From Phycisphaera sp. (GTDB lineage Bacteria; Planctomycetota; Phycisphaerae; Phycisphaerales; Zrk34): a stretch of DNA of 33,073 nucleotides. This document shows positions 2-9,750 of this stretch, piece by piece. A model generated the notes under the pieces. It was given only the letters and a program-made list of their open reading frames with translations, was not told the origin of the DNA and did no database searches. The position numbers were made by a program, and so were the translations under genes. Each line of letters starts with the position of its first letter. The first letter of the stretch is position 1. The stretch lies in contig WGMA01000054.1 of NCBI GenBank assembly GCA_016125285.1, positions 1 through 33,073 of the forward strand, written 5' to 3'.

Positions 2-1639
2 GTGGACTTGGCGGGGATGAACGTTCCGTCGCAGACCCGGCCCATCCGTGTCGGGCACAACAGCGACAAGCGCGTGGGCCATAGCAACGCGATCCGTGTC
101 GCAGAAGGACAGCTCGTGGCCGAAGGCGTCGTGTCGTGCACGGGCGCGACCGCCCGCGAGGTCGTCGCCGACGCGCAGAACGGATTCCCCTGGCAGGCGA
201 GCATCGGCGCGAGCGTCGACCAGTTCGAGTTCGTCCGCGACGGCCAGACCGTGACGGTCAACGGCCGCCCGTTCACCGGCCCCGTCAACGTCGTGCGCCG
301 CTCGACGCTCGGCGAGATCAGCTTCGTCGACCTCGGTGCCGACGCCAACACCTCAGCCAACGTGGCCGCATCGGCCAAGGAGACCCCCGAAATGACCGTT
401 CACAACAGCGACAAGAACAACAACAATGGCAGCGCCGCCACGGTGGAGGCGACCGGCACGGAAGCCGGTTCCTCTACCTCTACCCCCGGCACCGCCGCCG
501 ATCCCGTGCGGCAGATGCGCATCCGCGCCGCCGCCGAGCAGGAGCGCATCACCGCGATCCAGCAGGTCTGCGGCGAGCGCCACGGCAAGATCGCCGGCCA
601 GGCGATCCGTGAGGGCTGGGACGCGACGCGCACCGAACTGGAAGTGATGCGCCAGGACCGGCCCAAGGCCCCGGCGATCCACGCCGGGGGCGCGGGCGGC
701 GACGACGGTCCCGTTCCGGCTGAAGTCATTGAGGCGGCGCTGTGCGGCACGCTCAACACCCCCGGCCGCGAGAAGCGGTTCTCCGAGCAGACGCTCGAGG
801 CAGCCGACAAGCAGTACCGCCGGCTGGGCATTCAGGAACTGATCCTCATGGCCGCGCAGGCCGGCGGGTACGTCGGTCGCCCCACCGTCACGCGCGACAC
901 ACTCCGCGAGATGTTCCACGCCGCGTTCGCGCCGATCAACGCGGCGTTCAGCACGCTGTCGCTGCCGGCCATCCTCTCCAACGTCGCCAACAAGGAACTG
1001 CTGGCCGGGTTCATGGAGGAGGACCAGACCTGGCGCGACGTGTCCGTCACGCGCTCGGTCAGCGACTTCAAGACCGTCACCAGCTACCGGCTGCTGGACG
1101 ACATGGAGTACGAGGAGCTGGCCCCGGGCGGCGAGATCAAGCACGGCAAGCTGTCGGAGGAGACATACACCCGGCAGGCGCGCACCTACGCGAAGATGTT
1201 CTCGCTGACGCGCGACAAGATCATCGACGATGACATGGGCGCGTTCGAGGACCTGCGCGTGCGGCTCGGCGCGGGCGCTGCCCGCCGCTTCAACCGGGTC
1301 TTCTGGTCCCGGTTCATGGACAACGCCTCGTTCTTCACGTCCGGGCGCGGCAACTACGTCACGGGTGCGGACTCGGCGCTGGACATCAACGGCACCGGCC
1401 TGCAGAAGGGCATCCTCGCCTTCCGCAAGCTCAAGTCGCCCGACGGCAAGCGCCTCGGCGGCATCCCGACGATCCTGCTGGTGCCGCCGGAGCTTCAGTT
1501 CATCGCACAGCGTCTGTTCCAGAGCACGACGGTGAACAAAGTGGTCGAGTCGATCCTTACACGCATCGTCGTGCTGCAATCGAATGACACATCCGACCAA
1601 CCCCCATTGGAGGAGGGCGATCTCAATGACACCCGTTGA
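2..1639 (+). CDS. Prohead protease / Mu gpT-like major capsid fusion protein, 5' partial and 3' truncated
   Basis: The reading frame is open from the window edge, so the true start probably lies upstream. Residues 1-125 look like the C-terminal part of a phage prohead protease, with conserved stretches such as PWQASIGASV and GEISFVDLGADAN. Residues 130-290 are a charged, low-complexity linker like a scaffold. Residues from about 300 to 512 resemble the Mu gpT-type major head subunit, with INAAFSTLSLPAILSNVANK and FRKLKSPDGKRLGG. Such protease/capsid fusions are known in phages. After FQSTTVNKVV (about residue 513) the capsid similarity stops. The roughly 100-residue C-terminal part expected of gpT is replaced by about 30 unrelated residues ending at an overlap with the next start. 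I infer an internal deletion near 1540-1560. It is therefore unlikely to make a working capsid. Confidence 0.8.
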   Translation: MDLAGMNVPSQTRPIRVGHNSDKRVGHSNAIRVAEGQLVAEGVVSCTGATAREVVADAQNGFPWQASIGASVDQFEFVRDGQTVTVNGRPFTGPVNVVRRSTLGEISFVDLGADANTSANVAASAKETPEMTVHNSDKNNNNGSAATVEATGTEAGSSTSTPGTAADPVRQMRIRAAAEQERITAIQQVCGERHGKIAGQAIREGWDATRTELEVMRQDRPKAPAIHAGGAGGDDGPVPAEVIEAALCGTLNTPGREKRFSEQTLEAADKQYRRLGIQELILMAAQAGGYVGRPTVTRDTLREMFHAAFAPINAAFSTLSLPAILSNVANKELLAGFMEEDQTWRDVSVTRSVSDFKTVTSYRLLDDMEYEELAPGGEIKHGKLSEETYTRQARTYAKMFSLTRDKIIDDDMGAFEDLRVRLGAGAARRFNRVFWSRFMDNASFFTSGRGNYVTGADSALDINGTGLQKGILAFRKLKSPDGKRLGGIPTILLVPPELQFIAQRLFQSTTVNKVVESILTRIVVLQSNDTSDQPPLEEGDLNDTR

Positions 1640-1832: not shown

Positions 1833-3857
1833 GTGCCGTCAACCCAAGGCATCCGAGCAGGCCGCGCATTTGTTGAGCTGTTCGCCGACGACAGCCGACT
1901 TGTGCGCGGCCTGCGCGCCGCGGAGAAGAAGCTCAAGGCCTTCGGCCAGGGCATCCGCAATCTTGGGCTGAAGGTCATCGGCATCGGCGCGGCGATCCTC
2001 GCCCCGCTCGCCGCCTCGGCGAAAGTGTTCAGCGGCTACGGCGACCAGATCGCCAAGATGGCCAAGCGCACCGGCCTGAGCGTCGAGGCGCTCAGTGAAC
2101 TGCAGTTCGTCGCGTCGCAGACCGGCACCGACATCGACTCACTCGAAAACGGCGTCCGCCGAATGCAGCGGACGATCTACGACGCCGAACGCGGTTTGAG
2201 TACGGCCGTCGACGCGCTAAAGGACCTGGGACTGACCGCCGCCGATTTCAAGGGATTGTCGCCCGAAGCGCAGTTCAAGCTGCTGGCCGAACAGATCAGC
2301 AAGGTGGAAGACCCGTCGCGCCGAGCGGCGCTGGCGATGACGATCTTCGGGCGCAGCGGCACGGCGCTACTGCCCATGTTCGCGTCTGGGGCCAAAGGCA
2401 TCGAGGTGTTGCAGGCCCAGGCGCGACGGCTCGGCTTGACCATGAGTGGCGAGGATGCCCAAGCGGCCGAGGATTTCACGGACGCGATGGACCGGCTCTG
2501 GAAGACGATCCGAATCGGCATGTTCAACATCGGCGCAGCGCTTGCCCCGCTGCTCCAGAAGATCGCCAACACCATCACGAAGGTTGTGGTCAGCGCCGGC
2601 ACGTGGATCAAGGCGAACCGCCAGGTGATCGTCACCGTGGCCAAGGTCGCGGCCATCGTCATCGCTGTCGGCGCGGCACTGGTCGTGCTCGGCGTGCTCA
2701 TCTCCGGCCTGGGGTCGGCGATCGGAGTGCTCATCACGGTCATCACGGCCGTCGGTGCTGTGTTCAATATTCTGGCGGGCGTGATCGCGTTCCTGCTTTC
2801 GCCCATCGGAGCCGTGATCGCGGCCGTCGTGGCGCTCGGGGCATACCTCGTCTACGCGACCGGCATCGGCGGCAAGGCGCTGACGTGGTTGGGTGACCGC
2901 TTTGGGGAACTCAAAGACACCGCGATGGCCGCCTTCGGCGGGATCGCCGACGCCCTGGCCGCTGGCGACATTGCATTGGCGGCACGGATTCTGTGGCTGA
3001 CGCTCAAACTCGCATGGCAGGCGGGCATCGACCAGCTCAACCGATTGTGGCTCACGTTCAAGTCCGGGTTCCTCAAGATCGCCAGCGAGGCGTTTTACGG
3101 CGCGATCGCGGCGCTGGAGATCGCCACGCACGGGCTCGAAGTCGCCTGGATCGAAACCACCGCGTTCCTCAGCAAGACATGGACGAGCTTCACGGCGGGG
3201 TTCCAGAAGGCATGGGGAGGTGCCGTGGACTGGACGACCAAGCGTCTGCTCGAACTGCAGGGACTCTTCGACGACACCTTCGATGTGGACCAGGCCAAGC
3301 GGCTGGTCGATCAGCAAAGCGAAGCCGACAACCGCAACATCGATCAGCAGCGCGACGCGACGCTGGCGGCGCGGGAACAGGAGCGCCAGCAGCAGCGTGA
3401 CCAGTCTAAGCAGTTGCACGAAGCGACGCTCGCACAGATCGGATCGGAAGCCGACGCGAGTCTCAAGGCCATCAACACCGAGGCCGCCGCGAAGCGCAAA
3501 ACGACCGAGGACGCGCTCAAGCAGGCGCGCGATGAGTTTCAGAAGGCCGTGGATGAGGCGCGGCAGAAGCGCCAGACCCATGACGCGACGGGCCCCGGCG
3601 CACTCGAAGGACCGGATTCCATTCTCGACAAAGCCCGTCGCGCGCTCGCCGGGCTCGGCGACATCGGCGACACGATCAAGGAGCAGGCCGACAAGATCGG
3701 TGTGCGCGGCACGTTCAACGCATCGCCCGCCAGTCTGTTGGGTCTGCAGTCCGGGGCCAAGACGCAAGATCGCATCGCCAAGGCGGCGGAAGACACAGCG
3801 AAGAACACCAAGCGGATCGAGCAGGCGATCAACAACCACGCGATCGCCTTCGCGTAA
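1833..3857 (+). CDS. Phage tail tape measure protein (674 aa)
   Basis: It determines tail length and is packed in the tail lumen. The N-terminal 190 residues carry the usual tape measure pattern (an ADDSRLVRGLRAAEKKLKAF opening, then a gaSLEAL-like region seen here as KRTGLSVEALSELQFVASQT, and FGRSGTALLPMF). Residues about 269-345 are a long run of hydrophobic, Ala/Val/Ile-rich sequence with several potential membrane segments, typical of tape measure proteins. Residues about 480-585 are a highly charged Gln/Glu/Arg-rich coiled coil. The start is GTG at 1833, preceded by GGAG and 3 nt after the previous stop, which suggests coupled translation. At 674 aa it is within the range of short-tailed siphophages, and no frameshift is visible. 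The gene appears intact although the adjoining capsid and tail genes are truncated. Confidence 0.85.
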   Translation: MPSTQGIRAGRAFVELFADDSRLVRGLRAAEKKLKAFGQGIRNLGLKVIGIGAAILAPLAASAKVFSGYGDQIAKMAKRTGLSVEALSELQFVASQTGTDIDSLENGVRRMQRTIYDAERGLSTAVDALKDLGLTAADFKGLSPEAQFKLLAEQISKVEDPSRRAALAMTIFGRSGTALLPMFASGAKGIEVLQAQARRLGLTMSGEDAQAAEDFTDAMDRLWKTIRIGMFNIGAALAPLLQKIANTITKVVVSAGTWIKANRQVIVTVAKVAAIVIAVGAALVVLGVLISGLGSAIGVLITVITAVGAVFNILAGVIAFLLSPIGAVIAAVVALGAYLVYATGIGGKALTWLGDRFGELKDTAMAAFGGIADALAAGDIALAARILWLTLKLAWQAGIDQLNRLWLTFKSGFLKIASEAFYGAIAALEIATHGLEVAWIETTAFLSKTWTSFTAGFQKAWGGAVDWTTKRLLELQGLFDDTFDVDQAKRLVDQQSEADNRNIDQQRDATLAAREQERQQQRDQSKQLHEATLAQIGSEADASLKAINTEAAAKRKTTEDALKQARDEFQKAVDEARQKRQTHDATGPGALEGPDSILDKARRALAGLGDIGDTIKEQADKIGVRGTFNASPASLLGLQSGAKTQDRIAKAAEDTAKNTKRIEQAINNHAIAFA

Positions 3858-3868
3858 CGGACGACGAC

Positions 3869-4492
3869 ATGGCAGTCACGGTTCAAGAGCGATACGGCCG
3901 ACGGCTCAGCGACAAGAACGCTGAACTGCTGTATCTCATCCGTGGCACGAGCGACGACGCGACCGCTCGAACGGCGCTGTCGGCCGCAGCGCCAACGACG
4001 CACGACGGGCTGCCGATCTCCGACATTGAGGTCGAGGAACTCGAAGGCCTCGACGCCTATCTCGGAACGGTGCAGTACGCGCCGCCGGATTTTGAGCCGC
4101 CGGCCGAACCGTCGTTCTCGTTCGACACCTCCGGCGGCACGCAGCACATCACCCAGTCGCTCGGCACCGTTGGCTCGTACCCGGCCCCGGGCGGCAACGC
4201 GCCCAACTTCGGTGGCGCGATCGGTGTGACGCAGGACAGCGTCGAGGGCGTGGACATCACCGTCCCCGTCTACACCTTCTCCGAAACCCACTACCTGTCC
4301 GCGGGCACCGTGACCAACGCCTACAAGGGCACGCTGTTCAACCTCACCGGCAAGGTCAATTCCGGGGGGTTCAAGGGCCTGGCGGCGGGAGAGTGTTTGT
4401 TCCTGGGCGCATCGGGTTCGCAGCGCGGCGTCGGGGAGGATTGTAGATATCACGAAAGCGCTCTTCCTTTTCTTGGCCCGACAGTCCGATGA
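3869..4492 (+). CDS. Phage tail-region protein, 3' truncated
   Basis: The gene follows the tape measure gene by 11 nt on the same strand. It starts MAVTVQERYGRR and has a Thr/Gly/Pro-rich body that looks like beta structure. Hypothetical proteins of this kind follow the tape measure gene in planctomycete prophages, but I cannot name a function. The frame reads sensibly to GECLFLGASGSQRGVG at about 4433. After that come about 18 residues of unrelated sequence that overlap the antisense 3' end of the tcmP gene. The natural C-terminus therefore seems to have been lost at a junction near 4432-4445, and the last residues are translated from the other strand of tcmP. Probably non-functional. Confidence 0.65.
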   Translation: MAVTVQERYGRRLSDKNAELLYLIRGTSDDATARTALSAAAPTTHDGLPISDIEVEELEGLDAYLGTVQYAPPDFEPPAEPSFSFDTSGGTQHITQSLGTVGSYPAPGGNAPNFGGAIGVTQDSVEGVDITVPVYTFSETHYLSAGTVTNAYKGTLFNLTGKVNSGGFKGLAAGECLFLGASGSQRGVGEDCRYHESALPFLGPTVR

Positions 4493-5117
4493 CTGCCTTC
4501 CACTCGTCGCCCCCGAAGGCCTTCGAAATGCCCGTGTGCTTGGTTGCATCTGTCATGAATGGATGCAAGAGATTCCAATTCAAGTAAGAGAACGCCTCGC
4601 AGACATCGTGCTTAAGAATGCGATGAATCAGGCCCATCGAAAATGACGAATACCCGAATTGGTCCAAAAAGAACAAAGCGGGACCGACCCGGCGGTTGGT
4701 CTTCTCATGCTCGTCGATGATCTGCATGATGACCTGCTCGCAATCACCTTTGATCGGGTCGTCGATTATGATCTTCCCCGATTGCCCACGGGCGGGGTGC
4801 TGAGCGATTAGCGATCGAAGGTGCTGGACTCTGTCGTCCCGCAACTCGATCAACTTGATCTGAATGGGCACGTGAAAGTTTGTCGAATGGGTCAGCGCTG
4901 TTTCGATGGCAACAAGCGGGCTACCTGGAATGTTGTTGGTGAATTCGCCTGCGCCGGCGAATCCGTCGACATAAAGCAGGCGTCCATCGTTCAGACCAAG
5001 CCGGCGTGACTGGTTCGCCAAAATTGGCAACCATCGCTTCAAATACTCCCGAAGGATGTGGTGCTTGGCGCGTGAGTGGGGCTCCGCATCGTAGATGGTT
5101 TCCTTCGGATCGGCCAT
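4371..5117 (-). CDS. tcmP: Three-Cys-motif partner protein TcmP, 3' truncated
   Basis: The protein resembles the TcmP family (three-Cys-motif partner), usually encoded beside a DUF5131 (phage Gp37/Gp68 family) protein. Conserved stretches are HHILREYLKRWLPIL (residues 19-33), YVDGFAGAG (49-57) and FFLDQFGYSSFSM (149-161). The Gly-rich DGFAGAG and the later DQFGYS are placed like motifs I and IV of a Rossmann-type methyltransferase; this is my inference, not an established activity. ATG 5117 is preferred because the upstream TTG adds only four residues. Similarity runs to about FRDIYN (residue 226). The last 22 residues (Pro/Arg-rich) are translated from antisense phage tail-gene sequence, so the usual C-terminal portion is missing. 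The gene is probably a relic. Its partner is reduced to a scrap just upstream. Confidence 0.75.
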   Translation of the reverse strand: MADPKETIYDAEPHSRAKHHILREYLKRWLPILANQSRRLGLNDGRLLYVDGFAGAGEFTNNIPGSPLVAIETALTHSTNFHVPIQIKLIELRDDRVQHLRSLIAQHPARGQSGKIIIDDPIKGDCEQVIMQIIDEHEKTNRRVGPALFFLDQFGYSSFSMGLIHRILKHDVCEAFSYLNWNLLHPFMTDATKHTGISKAFGGDEWKAVIGLSGQEKEERFRDIYNPPRRRAANPMRPGTNTLPPPGP

Positions 5118-5125
5118 ACATGCTC

Positions 5126-5182
5126 TCAAACGGCGGTTGCGAATTCCGGCATCTCATCCCACGTACCGCCGCTCCCACATGT
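5126..5182 (-). pseudogene. C-terminal remnant of a DUF5131 (Gp37/Gp68 family) gene
   Basis: Read on the - strand in the frame ending at TGA (5126-5128), this stretch encodes CGSGGTWDEMPEFATAV and a stop. As I recall the family, the motif G-x-T-W-D-E-M-P close to the C-terminus is characteristic of DUF5131 proteins (the three-Cys-motif partners of TcmP), whose C-termini read like DGRTWDEMP. The stop lies 8 nt before the tcmP start, the spacing expected of the usual two-gene operon. Upstream of about 5182 the frame has no recognisable homology and runs into the sigma-like gene in another frame. I infer that a deletion removed almost the whole DUF5131 gene. The identification rests on one short motif plus position, so confidence is moderate. 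Confidence 0.5.
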
Positions 5183-5615
5183 CGATCGTGTATTTGAGCT
5201 GCGTGGTCCGCGGAGGTTTGGCCAACGACAGCACGTGCAGGCGGATCTCCTGACAGAGGTCGTCTTCGTCCGATCGCGAGAACTCCCGACGACGACAAAT
5301 CTGCTTTGCTCTTTGACGGATGAATTGATCTACGCCCGGGTCCAGCAGGTCGACGATCGTGTCGTCGCTCGGATTCTTTGAGCGCCGTGGTCGTTTGGTT
5401 GGCGACGCGTTTGAAGGCTCGGTGGCGGGTCGTGGTTGTGTTCGCGCGACGGGTTCCGCAATCGGGTCTGGGTGCGGCAGGAACTCCGGGATCGACGGCG
5501 GCAGCATGATCCCTCGAGCGAGTTCGTCCTTGTTGAGCGACCGGAGTAGGCCGATCGCGAGGATCTGTGCTACCGCGAGGAATTGTTCGTCGCGAGGCGT
5601 TTCGTCTTGGTCCAT
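5154..5615 (-). CDS. Short phage sigma-factor-like protein, probably truncated or chimeric (153 aa)
   Basis: ATG 5615 is chosen because GGAG lies 8 nt upstream on the - strand; an upstream in-frame extension (to 5717) would read through the inverted repeat. Residues 1-90 hold a hydrophobic helix (FLAVAQILAIGLLRSL) and a Pro/Arg/Ser-rich linker. Residues 94-128 (VDQFIRQRAKQICRRREF then SRSDEDDLCQEIRLHVL) resemble the start of sigma-70 region 2 as found in short sigma-like proteins of planctomycete prophages. After residue 128 that similarity ends. The remaining 25 residues share DNA, in another frame, with the DUF5131 remnant. I infer a deletion joining the sigma gene to the DUF5131 3' end near 5190-5215. 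A second possibility is that the two halves were once separate genes. Confidence 0.55.
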   Translation of the reverse strand: MDQDETPRDEQFLAVAQILAIGLLRSLNKDELARGIMLPPSIPEFLPHPDPIAEPVARTQPRPATEPSNASPTKRPRRSKNPSDDTIVDLLDPGVDQFIRQRAKQICRRREFSRSDEDDLCQEIRLHVLSLAKPPRTTQLKYTIDMWERRYVG

Positions 5616-5623
5616 CGTAGAGG

Positions 5624-5657
5624 CTCCTTGTGTGGTGACCGGCGCACACACAAGGAG
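5624..5657 (-). promoter_or_regulatory. Inverted repeat covering the ribosome binding site of the sigma-like gene
   Basis: CTCCTTGTGTG at 5624-5634 and CACACAAGGAG at 5647-5657 are perfect reverse complements (11 bp) around a 12-nt loop. In the - strand mRNA the arm nearer the start contains GGAG, the only good ribosome binding site for the ATG at 5615, 8 nt before it. Folding would hide the site. It could equally be an operator for a dimeric repressor, since the repeat also works as a dyad in DNA. No poly-U follows, so a terminator is unlikely. Confidence 0.55.
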
Positions 5658-5908
5658 CGGTAGTTGGGACGAAACCGCAAGGGGAAATCGCGGGTTTGCG
5701 ATGTTGCGACCAAGCACTGCACAACGTGGCGGCCAAGCCCTTTATGACAACGCCAAAAGTCGCAAGCTGCCGTGGCCGTGAGACCAGATCGAGAGTCTCT
5801 GACTGGACGGCCCGCCTAATTTGTACGTATTTTGTTAGTATGCCACAGAACTAGTTTGACTGGTCCGATCTCGCCTACGACACGATTGCGCACCCACTAC
5901 TTGCAGAA
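5658..5908. other. Prophage/chromosome boundary region without a gene
   Basis: I see no gene here. The most striking feature is an AT-rich patch at about 5816-5860 (around GTACGTATTTTGTTAGTATG), unlike the GC-rich surroundings. It is the last sequence before the chromosomal terminator hairpin and may mark the prophage end. A small inverted repeat, GAGAC at 5780-5784 and GTCTC at 5795-5799, lies nearby. No tRNA fragment is visible, and the other attachment site would lie left of the window, so no attachment core can be named. Confidence 0.3.
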
Positions 5909-5949
5909 GCACGGAAAGGCCGGTCGCTTACGACCGGCCTTTTCCGTGC
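5909..5949. terminator. Strong bidirectional-looking terminator hairpin
   Basis: An 18-nt arm at 5909-5926 (GCACGGAAAGGCCGGTCG) pairs with 5931-5949 around a CTTA loop, with one bulged T. The inner stem GGCCGGTCG/CGACCGGCC is flanked by AAA and TTTT, the layout of an intrinsic terminator that can act in both directions. It lies 145 nt past the stop of the large secreted cytochrome gene on the - strand and may end that transcript. Confidence 0.7.
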
Positions 5950-6093: not shown

Positions 6094-9000
6094 CTACTCG
6101 AGCGGATGCATCTTCAGCAGTTCATCGGGGGCGTAGAAGCCGACCTTCTCCTTGGTGGCGTCACGGACCTCTTTGACCTTGGCCGGGTCGACCATCGGGC
6201 CCTTGTTGCCGAACGAGTTGCGGACGTAGGTCAGCACGGCGGCGATCTCGTCGTCTTTGAGCATGCCGGCGAAGGGCGTCATCGGGACGAGGCCGGGGTA
6301 CTTCGCGCCCTTGACCTCGATCGGGCCGAACACGCCGTTGAGCGCGATCTTGATGATGCGTTCGTCGGAGCCGTGGACCCAGCGGCTGCCGGCGAGCGGC
6401 GGGAATCCCGCGGCGGACAGGCCGTTGCCGTCGGGCTGGTGGCAGGTGATGCAGAACCCTTCGCGGGCGTAGATCTCGGCGCCCTGCGTGTAGAGCTTGC
6501 GCGCCTCGCCCTTGAGGTGAGCGGGCACGTTGATGACCACCTTCTCCTTGATCGCCTGGTTGTTGAGGTGCGCCAGCGCGGTCTTGAACGGCGGATCGAT
6601 CCAACTGTCGTAGGCAAACGGCGAGTCTTTACCGCCGCTGTTGCCCGAGATCTTGACCTGGACGGACGCGACCTTCTTCTTGCCGTTAAAGAACTCGATC
6701 TTGGCGTCATTGAAACGATCCTCGAAGCCGCCGCGGTTCCATATCCGCAGGCCGTCGAGCGCGACGGGCGCGTCGAACGCCGCCTTGATCCACGGGTTCG
6801 ACGTGCCATCCTTCGAGTGGGACATCGACGCCTTGTTGCCGTCGGTCAGATTCTTGATGGGGTACTCGCCGGAGTGGTACTCGGAGTCGCTCGTGACCTT
6901 CGCATCGCCGGCGATGTTCCTGCCGCCAGCGAGGATCTCCATCTCCATCAGGTTGATGGTGCGATTCTTGCCGGGCAGCGAGATCATGAGGTTGGTGACC
7001 TTCTCGCCGTTGAAGGCGGGGGTCACGTCGATCTGCAGGCCGTTGATTTTCACCGCGTCCTGCTGCTGATCGTCCTGCTTCTCCTTGGCGCCGGTGACGG
7101 CTGCAACGGCGGCGTCGAGCACGGCCAGGCCGTCGGTCTTGTCGAGCCACGACGCGGCGACGATCGCCTCGAGCTTCACACGCCCCTGCGGGTCCTGCGC
7201 CGCCTTCTTGAGCAGCGCGACCTGGTCCTTGACCTGGTGGCCGGTGTACCGCAGCACCTCGACCGCCGCGGCGCGGGCGCGGTAGTCCTGCGACTCCAGC
7301 AGCTCACGCAGCAGCGTCTGGTCGACGCGGTCCATGCCCCACGTCACCCACAGCGCCTCGAGGCGGTGGTGCTCGTAGCGCGGGTCGTTCTTGTCGAGCC
7401 CGGCGACCCACTTCGTGACCGCCGCGCACACCGCGTCGGCGTCGCGGCCACGCAGCTCACGACGCGTGCGGTAGCGCGTGCGGTACTCCGGCAGCTTGAG
7501 GTTGTCGAGCAACTGCTCGATGCTCGCGCCGTCGATCTTCGCCGGCGTCACGAGCGGGCGGCCCGTGTAGTAGATGCGGTAGATGCGGCCGTGCGCGTGG
7601 TCGCGATTGGGGTCACGCGCGTTGTGCTGCATGTGACCGATCAGCGGGTTGTGCCAGTCGACGATGAACAGCGAGCCGTCCGGCGCGAACTCCAGGTCGA
7701 CCGGGCGGAAGTTGCCGTCGCTCGACACCGTCAGGTCCTGCCGCCACTTCGTCTTGTAGCCCGTGCCGTCGTCCATCACCTGATGCTGCTTGGTGCCGCG
7801 GAAGCCGATGTTGTTGTTGATCAGCATGTCGCCTTGCACCTCGTCGGGGAAGTTGCGGCTCGAGACGAACTCGAGTCCCGCGGTCGGGCGCACGCGGTGG
7901 GCCGGCTCGACCAGGTCTTCGCTGCGCGGGTTCGCCGAGCCGTACATCGACTTGACGGTGCCCGGCACCATCCACTCGGCGTTGGGGCTCGACGTGTAGA
8001 GGAAGAAGTGCTGGCCCCAGTCGTCGTAGGCGACGCCCCACGGGTTGGGGATCGGCAGCTGCGCGTGACGCTCGAGCTTGTGGGTCTGCGGGGCGTAGCG
8101 GTAGAAGCCGCCGTCGGTGCCGCGGACCGGGCCGTACGCCGTCTCGACGTCTGTGCGGAGGAACGTGCCTTCGCTCATGATGAAGGCGCCCGACGGGTCG
8201 GCGCAGTAGGCGCCGATCGCGTGGTGCGTGTCGTGATCGTCGAAGCCGCTCATGATGATTTCCTGCGTGTCGGCGTGGTCGTCGCCGTTGGTGTCGCGCA
8301 GGCGCACGAGGTTGATGCCCTGCGAGACGTACACGCCGTCGTGCGAGATCTCGAAGCCCATCGGCAGGTGCAGACCGTCGGCCCAAACGGTTTCCTTGTC
8401 GGCCTTGCCGTCGTTGTCGGTGTCCTCGAAGATCAGGATCTTGTCGTTCGGCTTCGGATCGCCGGGCTTCCAGTGCGGGTAGATCGGCATCACCGCGACC
8501 CAGAGCCGGCCCTTGTTGTCGAAGGACATCTGCACGGGGTTCGCCAGGTCGGGGAACTCCTGCTCGGTGGCCCACTGCTCGATCTTGTAGCCCTCGGGCA
8601 CCGTGATCGTGTCGAGCGCCTCCTTGCCGGTAAGGAACGTCAGCTCGCCGTTCTTGCCGCCGGGCTTGTAGTTGGTCGGCACGGGCGGCAGCGTCGAGGT
8701 CTTGGCGTCGAGCGCCGCGACGTCGAGCGTGTTGCCGGTCGCCGCGGCCCAGATCGCCTGGTCGCGGATGTCGGTCATCTCACGGATCTTGTTGATCTCG
8801 AACGGATAGTTCTGCGGGCCGAACGGGTTGTATCGACGCCCGAACACGTGCACGCCGTTGGGGATCTTGAAGTCCTTGAGCCACATCCAGTTCTTCTCTT
8901 TGACCGCCGCGGCGACCGCGTCCTGATACTGCGTCGACGGGGGCTCGGTCTTGCCGAACGTGCGGTCGATCAGCAACTCGGAGAACCTGCGGTAGCCCGC

Positions 9001-9750
9001 GTCGTTCATGAGCGCGCCGTCGATCGTCAGCGGCTTGTCCGTCTCGCTGTACCACTTGATCGACGGGCTCAGCGCGTCGACGAACAGCACGTTGTTGTCC
9101 TTCGCCACCGCCTCCATCACCGAGGTGTACGCCGCGAGATTGCTGTTCTCTTTCTTGCCGTCCGGCACGTCGGGCGCGCCCGGCATCTTCGTGATGTCCT
9201 GGATCGCGGTGGGCGACACGAGCACGAGCTGCGGCGTCGACTCGCCGTTGTACTTCTGGCTCAGCGTGTGCTTCACGAACGCGTCGAGCTCGGCGTGGTA
9301 GTTGTTCAGACCCGCGCTGCCCTGGAACGACTCGTTGAAGCCGAAGAACGCGATGATGATGTCCGGCTTGAGACGCGCGAGCCACTGCTCTTCGGTCTCG
9401 AAGTGGCCCACGCCGTTGGCCGTGTTGCCGCCGGTGTACTGACGCGTGAACGGCTCGGCGCCGGGGAACCCGAGCTGGTCGGCGCGGCCGGAGTGCGGAC
9501 GGAAGCTCGGCGTGTTGCCCTCGTCGCACATGTTGCGGATGAACAGCTTCGCCTGCGGGTAACGCAGGTACATGCCCGTCTCGAAGTAGCCGAAGTGGAG
9601 CATGCGGGACCCGAGCCCGTTGCCCATCAGCACGATCCGCGCGTTGGGCTCGATCTTCAGGTGCTCGGGCGCCGCGGCGCTGAGCACGCACGGGGAAATC
9701 ATCGCGATCAACACAGCAAACAACGCACGCGGGGCGAATCGATCAATCAT
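6094..9750 (-). CDS. Secreted PVC-type CxxCH heme protein with SGNH-like, propeller, HEAT-like and cytochrome c domains (1218 aa)
   Basis: ATG 9750 gives a clear signal peptide (MIDRFAPRALFAVLIAMIS, cleavage near LSAAA) and has an AAAGG ribosome binding site; the longer frame to 9810 does not. Order of parts: an SGNH/GDSL-like domain (about 32-290); a PVC-type dehydrogenase-like beta-propeller (about 380-730, with PVQMSFDNKGRLWVAVMPIY and GDMLINNNIGFRG); helical HEAT-like repeats (about 750-880); an F5/8C-like beta domain (about 900-1040); and a C-terminal cytochrome c with CITCH near 1103 and a likely Met ligand in VPMTPFAGM near 1156. It is presumably periplasmic, with the cytochrome taking electrons from oxidation of a sugar or alcohol (family-based inference). 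The SGNH block I serine is replaced (VLMGNGL) and the usual catalytic His of block V is missing (DGALMNDAGY), so that domain is probably a binding module. It has no close operon partner. Confidence 0.9.
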   Translation of the reverse strand: MIDRFAPRALFAVLIAMISPCVLSAAAPEHLKIEPNARIVLMGNGLGSRMLHFGYFETGMYLRYPQAKLFIRNMCDEGNTPSFRPHSGRADQLGFPGAEPFTRQYTGGNTANGVGHFETEEQWLARLKPDIIIAFFGFNESFQGSAGLNNYHAELDAFVKHTLSQKYNGESTPQLVLVSPTAIQDITKMPGAPDVPDGKKENSNLAAYTSVMEAVAKDNNVLFVDALSPSIKWYSETDKPLTIDGALMNDAGYRRFSELLIDRTFGKTEPPSTQYQDAVAAAVKEKNWMWLKDFKIPNGVHVFGRRYNPFGPQNYPFEINKIREMTDIRDQAIWAAATGNTLDVAALDAKTSTLPPVPTNYKPGGKNGELTFLTGKEALDTITVPEGYKIEQWATEQEFPDLANPVQMSFDNKGRLWVAVMPIYPHWKPGDPKPNDKILIFEDTDNDGKADKETVWADGLHLPMGFEISHDGVYVSQGINLVRLRDTNGDDHADTQEIIMSGFDDHDTHHAIGAYCADPSGAFIMSEGTFLRTDVETAYGPVRGTDGGFYRYAPQTHKLERHAQLPIPNPWGVAYDDWGQHFFLYTSSPNAEWMVPGTVKSMYGSANPRSEDLVEPAHRVRPTAGLEFVSSRNFPDEVQGDMLINNNIGFRGTKQHQVMDDGTGYKTKWRQDLTVSSDGNFRPVDLEFAPDGSLFIVDWHNPLIGHMQHNARDPNRDHAHGRIYRIYYTGRPLVTPAKIDGASIEQLLDNLKLPEYRTRYRTRRELRGRDADAVCAAVTKWVAGLDKNDPRYEHHRLEALWVTWGMDRVDQTLLRELLESQDYRARAAAVEVLRYTGHQVKDQVALLKKAAQDPQGRVKLEAIVAASWLDKTDGLAVLDAAVAAVTGAKEKQDDQQQDAVKINGLQIDVTPAFNGEKVTNLMISLPGKNRTINLMEMEILAGGRNIAGDAKVTSDSEYHSGEYPIKNLTDGNKASMSHSKDGTSNPWIKAAFDAPVALDGLRIWNRGGFEDRFNDAKIEFFNGKKKVASVQVKISGNSGGKDSPFAYDSWIDPPFKTALAHLNNQAIKEKVVINVPAHLKGEARKLYTQGAEIYAREGFCITCHQPDGNGLSAAGFPPLAGSRWVHGSDERIIKIALNGVFGPIEVKGAKYPGLVPMTPFAGMLKDDEIAAVLTYVRNSFGNKGPMVDPAKVKEVRDATKEKVGFYAPDELLKMHPLE

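What the first reader, a model, noticed from the sequence alone, without database searches (positions are those of the whole stretch)
5118..5215. Collapsed DUF5131-TcmP cassette inside a prophage
tcmP normally follows a DUF5131 (Gp37/Gp68) gene. Here the only trace of the partner is a C-terminal GGTWDEMPE stretch, ending 8 nt before tcmP, in a frame overlapping the tail of a sigma-like gene. A deletion seems to have removed the rest of DUF5131 and the end of the sigma gene. Finding the pair in phage cargo supports the view that it is a mobile accessory module; its biochemical role is, as far as I know, unsettled.
Basis: partly seen in the sequence, partly recalled or inferred. Interest (0 to 1): 0.6.

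Follow-up and report, generated by a model that had tools for sequence, protein, structure and literature searches.

The report
Broken defence-gene pair in decayed prophage
A 0.7-kilobase scrap of a two-gene cassette that databases list as a candidate anti-phage system is stranded, broken at both ends, in a decayed prophage; an intact copy occurs in a related virus, so this is probably a dead relic of a known kind.

Summary
On the minus strand, the last codons of a DUF5131 gene (GGTWDEMPEFATAV-stop, 5170-5126) end 8 nt before the tcmP ATG (5117), overlapping a sigma-like ORF. The stretch is too short for a profile hit (E 4.3); motif, frame, stop and spacing identify it.

tcmP is broken too: it stops matching relatives at 4443, where a plus-strand phage tail gene also stops, losing about 156 of 382 residues. 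A 0.73-kb cassette fragment, 54% G+C, is thus wedged between two truncated genes. A further deletion lies near 1540-1583.

The pair is PADLOC's unvalidated candidate PDC-M30/M41. Models of the intact relatives show a radical-SAM fold (DUF5131) and an RlmJ methyltransferase fold (TcmP). The window copy is most likely non-functional; a mis-assembly cannot be excluded without reads.

The parts
5126..5170 (-). DUF5131 remnant: GGTWDEMPEFATAV and TGA; the rest of the gene (about 248 of 260 residues in the relative L138) is missing
4443..5117 (-). tcmP fragment: start codon to the break, 225 residues matching residues 1-226 of the 382-aa relative in L138; the frame reads on into tail-gene DNA and stops at 4371
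4441..4444 (.). junction 1: tail gene joined to the interior of tcmP
   Evidence: tail homology to 4441, tcmP homology from 4443, sequences compared; the BLAST alignment to the C84 copy runs on to 4454
3869..4442 (+). phage tail-region gene, 3' part lost (residues 1-194 of 266 kept)
5154..5615 (-). sigma-like ORF; homology ends at residue 132-133 of 153 (about 5220), the origin of 5171-5219 is unknown
1833..3857 (+). phage tape measure protein gene
2..1639 (+). prohead protease and capsid fusion gene, collinear with the C64 prophage only to about 1540
1540..1583 (.). another deletion junction: about 4.2 kb of the C64 prophage order is missing here

Best explanation
This is a dead relic. A temperate phage of this family carried a DUF5131-tcmP cassette as cargo; after integration the prophage decayed by several rearrangements. 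One joined the interior of a tail gene to the interior of tcmP (4441-4444). Another joined the last codons of DUF5131 to a sigma-like gene (about 5170), with an inversion if the ancestor was laid out like the known intact phage. The intact cassette most likely encodes an anti-phage pair: a radical-SAM-type enzyme (DUF5131) and an RlmJ-like SAM methyltransferase with a C-terminal winged helix (TcmP), jointly modifying nucleic acid. Shown: the remnants, the cuts, the intact relative, the predicted folds. Inferred: the order of events, loss of function, the anti-phage role and the substrate.
For: Remnant motif, frame, stop and spacing. TcmP 135 bits to TIGR04474 but only positions 1-206 of 263. 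Tail gene cut at the same place. Intact pair in a related phage contig. Other decay of this prophage family in the same genome. No DUF5131 elsewhere in the genome and no second TcmP. Lower G+C of the fragment. PADLOC candidate defence models. Folds.
Against: The remnant alone gives no significant profile hit. 0 of 19 viral contigs sharing the tail gene carry TcmP, many being fragments. The sigma gene orientation needs an extra inversion. No reads were available to rule out a mis-join.
Confidence: 0.83

Rival explanations
1. Assembly chimera: the 0.73-kb fragment was wrongly joined between pieces of unrelated prophages in a draft genome.
For: The genome is a 90-contig draft holding four related copies of the tail gene, which favours mis-joins; both breaks are abrupt.
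Against: Contamination is estimated at 0.04%. The fragment has no second copy in the assembly to have come from. Its nearest relative found is in a phage related to a prophage of this genome.
Confidence: 0.1
2. The shortened tcmP is kept and works alone: the open 252-aa frame still holds the SAM-binding DGFAGAG and the DQFG motif.
For: The frame is open with no internal stop and both motifs are present.
Against: It lacks the part that forms strands 238-245 and 251-259 and the winged helix in the relative's model, and ends in 23 residues read from tail-gene DNA. Full-length partners adjoin in 17 of 17 bacterial loci, though one of those TcmPs is itself interrupted by a stop.
Confidence: 0.04
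3. The GGTWDEMPE stretch is chance or belongs to a different gene.
For: The full-length profile search ranks it third with E 4.3.
Against: One exact pattern match against 0 in 100 shuffles; 12 of 12 other TWDEMP motifs lie in DUF5131 ORFs; right frame, stop and distance beside tcmP.
Confidence: 0.02

Closest known systems
Intact DUF5131-TcmP pair of IMG/VR contig 3300050581_000226 (L138)
   Same: TcmP 69% identical; DUF5131 ends in the same TWDEMP motif just before tcmP; the contig has terminase-region, portal, recombinase-module and sigma genes related to this genome's C64 prophage or to the window
   Different: Both genes intact (260 and 382 aa), next to hsdRM; its sigma gene points the other way relative to the pair
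PADLOC candidates PDC-M30 and PDC-M41
   Same: TcmP hits the A models and DUF5131 of intact relatives hits the B models
   Different: The window has a partial A and no B beyond a few codons; the candidates themselves are unvalidated
RlmJ, 23S rRNA A2030 N6-methyltransferase
   Same: Closest solved fold of the intact TcmP, Z 17.1, rmsd 3.2, 210 aligned; weak sequence match E 2.6e-5
   Different: 14% identity; D-P/Q-x-G instead of the DPPY motif (DPPY recalled); extra C-terminal winged helix
Radical SAM enzymes: spore photoproduct lyase, viperin, lipoyl synthase
   Same: Fold of the intact DUF5131 (Z 12.7 to spore photoproduct lyase, about 11 to viperin-like and lipoyl synthase) and three invariant cysteines
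   Different: CX6CX2C spacing rather than CX3CX2C (the latter recalled); about 10% identity to spore photoproduct lyase; no sequence match in the PDB

Membership tests
TcmP (TIGR04474) | score above the curated cut-off of 53 bits | tested here: met
   135.2 bits
TcmP (TIGR04474) | full-length domain | tested here: not met
   profile positions 1-206 of 263 only
DUF5131 (PF07505) | C-terminal DGRTWDEMP-like end before tcmP | tested here: met
   GGTWDEMPE, stop 8 nt before the ATG
DUF5131 (PF07505) | full domain with the three N-terminal cysteines | tested here: not met
   no match in the genome; the remnant is 14 codons; profile E 4.3
PDC-M30 candidate defence system | both genes present and complete | tested here: not met
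   partial A (residues 14-197 against 9-189 of 372), B reduced to its tail
PDC-M30 candidate defence system | anti-phage activity | not testable with these tools
   unvalidated in the passages read
Radical SAM superfamily (intact DUF5131) | partial TIM-barrel radical-SAM fold | tested here: met
   Z 12.7, rmsd 2.8, 188 aligned to spore photoproduct lyase; Foldseek alone gave E 0.0024 at best
Radical SAM superfamily (intact DUF5131) | CX3CX2C motif (recalled) | tested here: not met
   invariant C20, C27, C30, that is CX6CX2C; variants are known (recalled)
RlmJ (intact TcmP) | methyltransferase fold | tested here: met
   Z 17.1
RlmJ (intact TcmP) | DPPY catalytic motif (recalled) | tested here: not met
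   D-P-x-G in most rows, D-Q-F-G in this subtype

The most novel reading that the evidence does not exclude
The intact cassette is a two-enzyme antiviral system in which a radical-SAM protein resembling spore photoproduct lyase and viperin (DUF5131) works with an RlmJ-like methyltransferase (TcmP) on nucleic acid or nucleotides; temperate phages carry it to exclude rivals, and the window shows one such copy after decay.
Probability: 0.4. Interest if true: 0.6.

Novelty: new member of a known kind. Interest (0 to 1): 0.25.

Why it matters
The window copy is a relic and changes little by itself. Tracing it led to an intact phage-borne pair next to type I restriction genes and to fold evidence for both partners of a candidate defence cassette. 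That gives the open question of what DUF5131-TcmP does a concrete enzymatic hypothesis to test.

Tried and rejected
The first family accession I used for DUF5131 was recalled wrongly (PF18583) and told nothing about it; the search was repeated with PF07505. A peptide-pattern scan of genome contigs with the window TcmP found no relative, nor did viral scans with the sigma ORF or the window TcmP alone; the alignment-based scan succeeded. The tail gene found nothing among annotated phages; TcmP found 6 phage records, 23-39% identical, 5 of them Gordonia phages. The idea that phages sharing the tail gene commonly carry the pair was not supported: 0 of 19 contigs, all classed without a completeness of 90%. 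The capsid fusion of C64 found nothing in the intact-pair contig, and the window's capsid, tape measure and tail proteins found nothing in the stretches of it that I held; that contig ends within the portal gene, so relatedness rests on the terminase region, portal, recombinase module and sigma. The origin of 5171-5219 was not found: in the rows that were printed (first 20 of the tblastx list) only the window's own copies appeared. The idea that the pair is only phage cargo was rejected because bacterial neighbourhoods mostly look chromosomal, judged by eye from N-terminal sequences, not by profile. A profile search of the PDB with DUF5131 found nothing.

Literature: DUF5131 occurs in 0 papers of the library. 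'Gp37Gp68' or 'three-Cys-motif' occurs in 4 papers (listing; passages read in 2 of them). PDC-M30 occurs in 2 papers (listing; passages read). Passages were also read in PMC11514479, PMC12988326 and PMC12255303. No whole paper was read.

Full report
Observation. The window is the whole contig C6 of a 6.09-Mb draft genome in 90 contigs. On the minus strand, the frame closed by the TGA at 5126-5128 ends CGSGGTWDEMPEFATAV, and the tcmP ATG follows 8 nt later at 5117. The frame overlaps the last codons of the ORF 5154-5615, called sigma-like because of a weak match to region 2 (E 0.13, below the cut-off) and relatives in 36 of 400 genomes, own included. Intact DUF5131 proteins mostly end in DGRTWDEMP-like sequence close to the start of tcmP. 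The degenerate pattern occurs once in the window and in 0 of 100 shuffles. In 1.24 Mb of other loci TWDEMP occurs 12 times, always in a DUF5131 ORF, one place being counted twice; these loci were largely fetched for DUF5131 or TcmP, so the count says where the motif lies, not how rare it is. A family profile alone does not find the remnant (E 4.3).

tcmP is cut as well. The ORF scores 135 bits to TIGR04474 but matches only positions 1-206 of 263. Its closest relative found, in L138, has 382 aa; the window matches residues 1-226 of it, and nucleotide similarity starts at 4443. The plus-strand tail-region gene matches the 266-aa homologue of L030 only over 3869-4441. A copy on contig C84 is 91% identical over 264 bp (that alignment runs to 4454) and shares GAGGATTG with the window before they part. 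The junction is therefore at about 4441-4444. The cassette fragment has 54.3% G+C, the tail piece 66.1% and the sigma piece 61.1%.

Other decay. The capsid fusion gene runs collinear with the C64 prophage to about 1540 and then jumps about 4.2 kb. The same genome holds full-length tail genes on C64 and C68, and on C84 a copy that starts at residue 103. The phage identity of the capsid fusion and the tape measure is firm.

A scan of IMG/VR with an alignment of five TcmPs gave 10 loci. The best, contig 3300050581_000226, has a TcmP 69% identical to the window's and an intact DUF5131. Its neighbours are hsdM and hsdR and a module of DUF2924, serine recombinase and a small protein. Further along, by eye, are XRE, ImmA-like, sigma, exonuclease, Sak4-like and primase-like genes, with profile support for their counterparts in L093. 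At the far end are a terminase-region protein and a portal 64% and 59% identical to those of the C64 prophage; the recombinase-module proteins are 52-54% identical to C64's, and the sigma gene matches the window's at 43% over 44 residues. So a phage related to this genome's prophages carries the intact pair. There the pair is on the strand opposite to the late genes, as in the window, but its sigma gene is on the late-gene strand, unlike the window; an inversion is needed if that layout is ancestral.

How general the pairing is. In 17 of 17 bacterial loci examined DUF5131 and TcmP adjoin: 12 DUF5131-first, 4 TcmP-first, 1 convergent; in L087 TcmP is interrupted by a stop. These 17 are the 15 other TcmP-bearing genomes of the relatives search (16 of 151 with the own genome) and the two best of the phylum search. 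Among 90 viral loci chosen by DUF5131 or TcmP similarity, 86 had DUF5131, 48 had TcmP and 44 had both within 500 bp; two of the 44 are the same contig. Bacterial neighbourhoods looked mostly chromosomal, for example trpS-like genes in three loci (by eye).

What the intact cassette may do. PADLOC places TcmP in PDC-M30A/M41A and DUF5131 in PDC-M30B/M41B. Such candidates come from guilt-by-embedding and most are unvalidated (passages of PMC10855318 and PMC12988326). PMC10855318 predicts PDC-M30 in 32 of 100 Pseudomonas aeruginosa strains, 68.8% of the 32 phage-resistant, a correlation only. In PMC12445080 a TcmP gene stands in the same table as the defence gene hna of Sinorhizobium meliloti, two locus numbers away (passage). 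AlphaFold2 models of the L138 proteins have mean pLDDT 89.7 (TcmP) and 87.1 (DUF5131). TcmP aligns best with RlmJ, Z 17.1, rmsd 3.2, 210 aligned, and a TcmP profile also matches RlmJ by sequence (E 2.6e-5); it carries a GMT-wHTH domain at 294-351. DUF5131 aligns best with spore photoproduct lyase, Z 12.7, rmsd 2.8, 188 aligned, then with viperin-like enzymes and lipoyl synthase at about Z 11; Foldseek's own E-values were 0.0024 or worse. Its three invariant N-terminal cysteines are spaced CX6CX2C, not the canonical CX3CX2C (recalled). Joint action of the two enzymes on nucleic acid is an inference from folds and context.

Verdict. The window holds a relic, cut on both sides, of a known candidate defence cassette in a decayed prophage. 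Loss of function is inferred: the part forming strands 238-245 and 251-259, the winged helix and nearly all of DUF5131 are missing. A mis-assembly cannot be excluded without reads. The relic is ordinary; the intact phage-borne pair it points to is the more interesting object.

Noticed in passing
L102 2817-4208 (own genome, contig C84): A related prophage copy in which no tape measure gene was picked between the tail-assembly genes and a tail gene that starts only at residue 103: another internal deletion.
   Followed up: partly
window 5623-5634 and 5647-5658: Perfect 12-bp inverted repeat (GCTCCTTGTGTG / CACACAAGGAGC) just upstream of the sigma-like start at 5615; possible operator or terminator (read).
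   Followed up: no
window 5909-5949: Long near-perfect inverted repeat (GCACGGAAAGGCCGGTCG and its complement with one extra T), terminator-like, between the sigma-like gene and the host-like gene at 6094 (read).
   Followed up: no
L084 9941-11050, L085 8162-9226, L012 68-1459 (same place as L086): DUF5131-TcmP beside a trpS-like gene in three genomes (two or more genera), suggesting a recurrent chromosomal site (by eye).
   Followed up: no
L100 1822-9851 (own genome, contig C64): Between the late genes and the recombinase module of the C64 prophage lie MerR-like and other non-phage-looking genes, possibly metal-resistance cargo, judged by N-terminal sequence only.
   Followed up: no
window 5400-5615 and L093 about 9545-9700: The N-terminal half of the window's sigma-like ORF resembles sequence that other genomes have upstream of the sigma gene with stops between, so the window ORF may be a fusion.
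   Followed up: no
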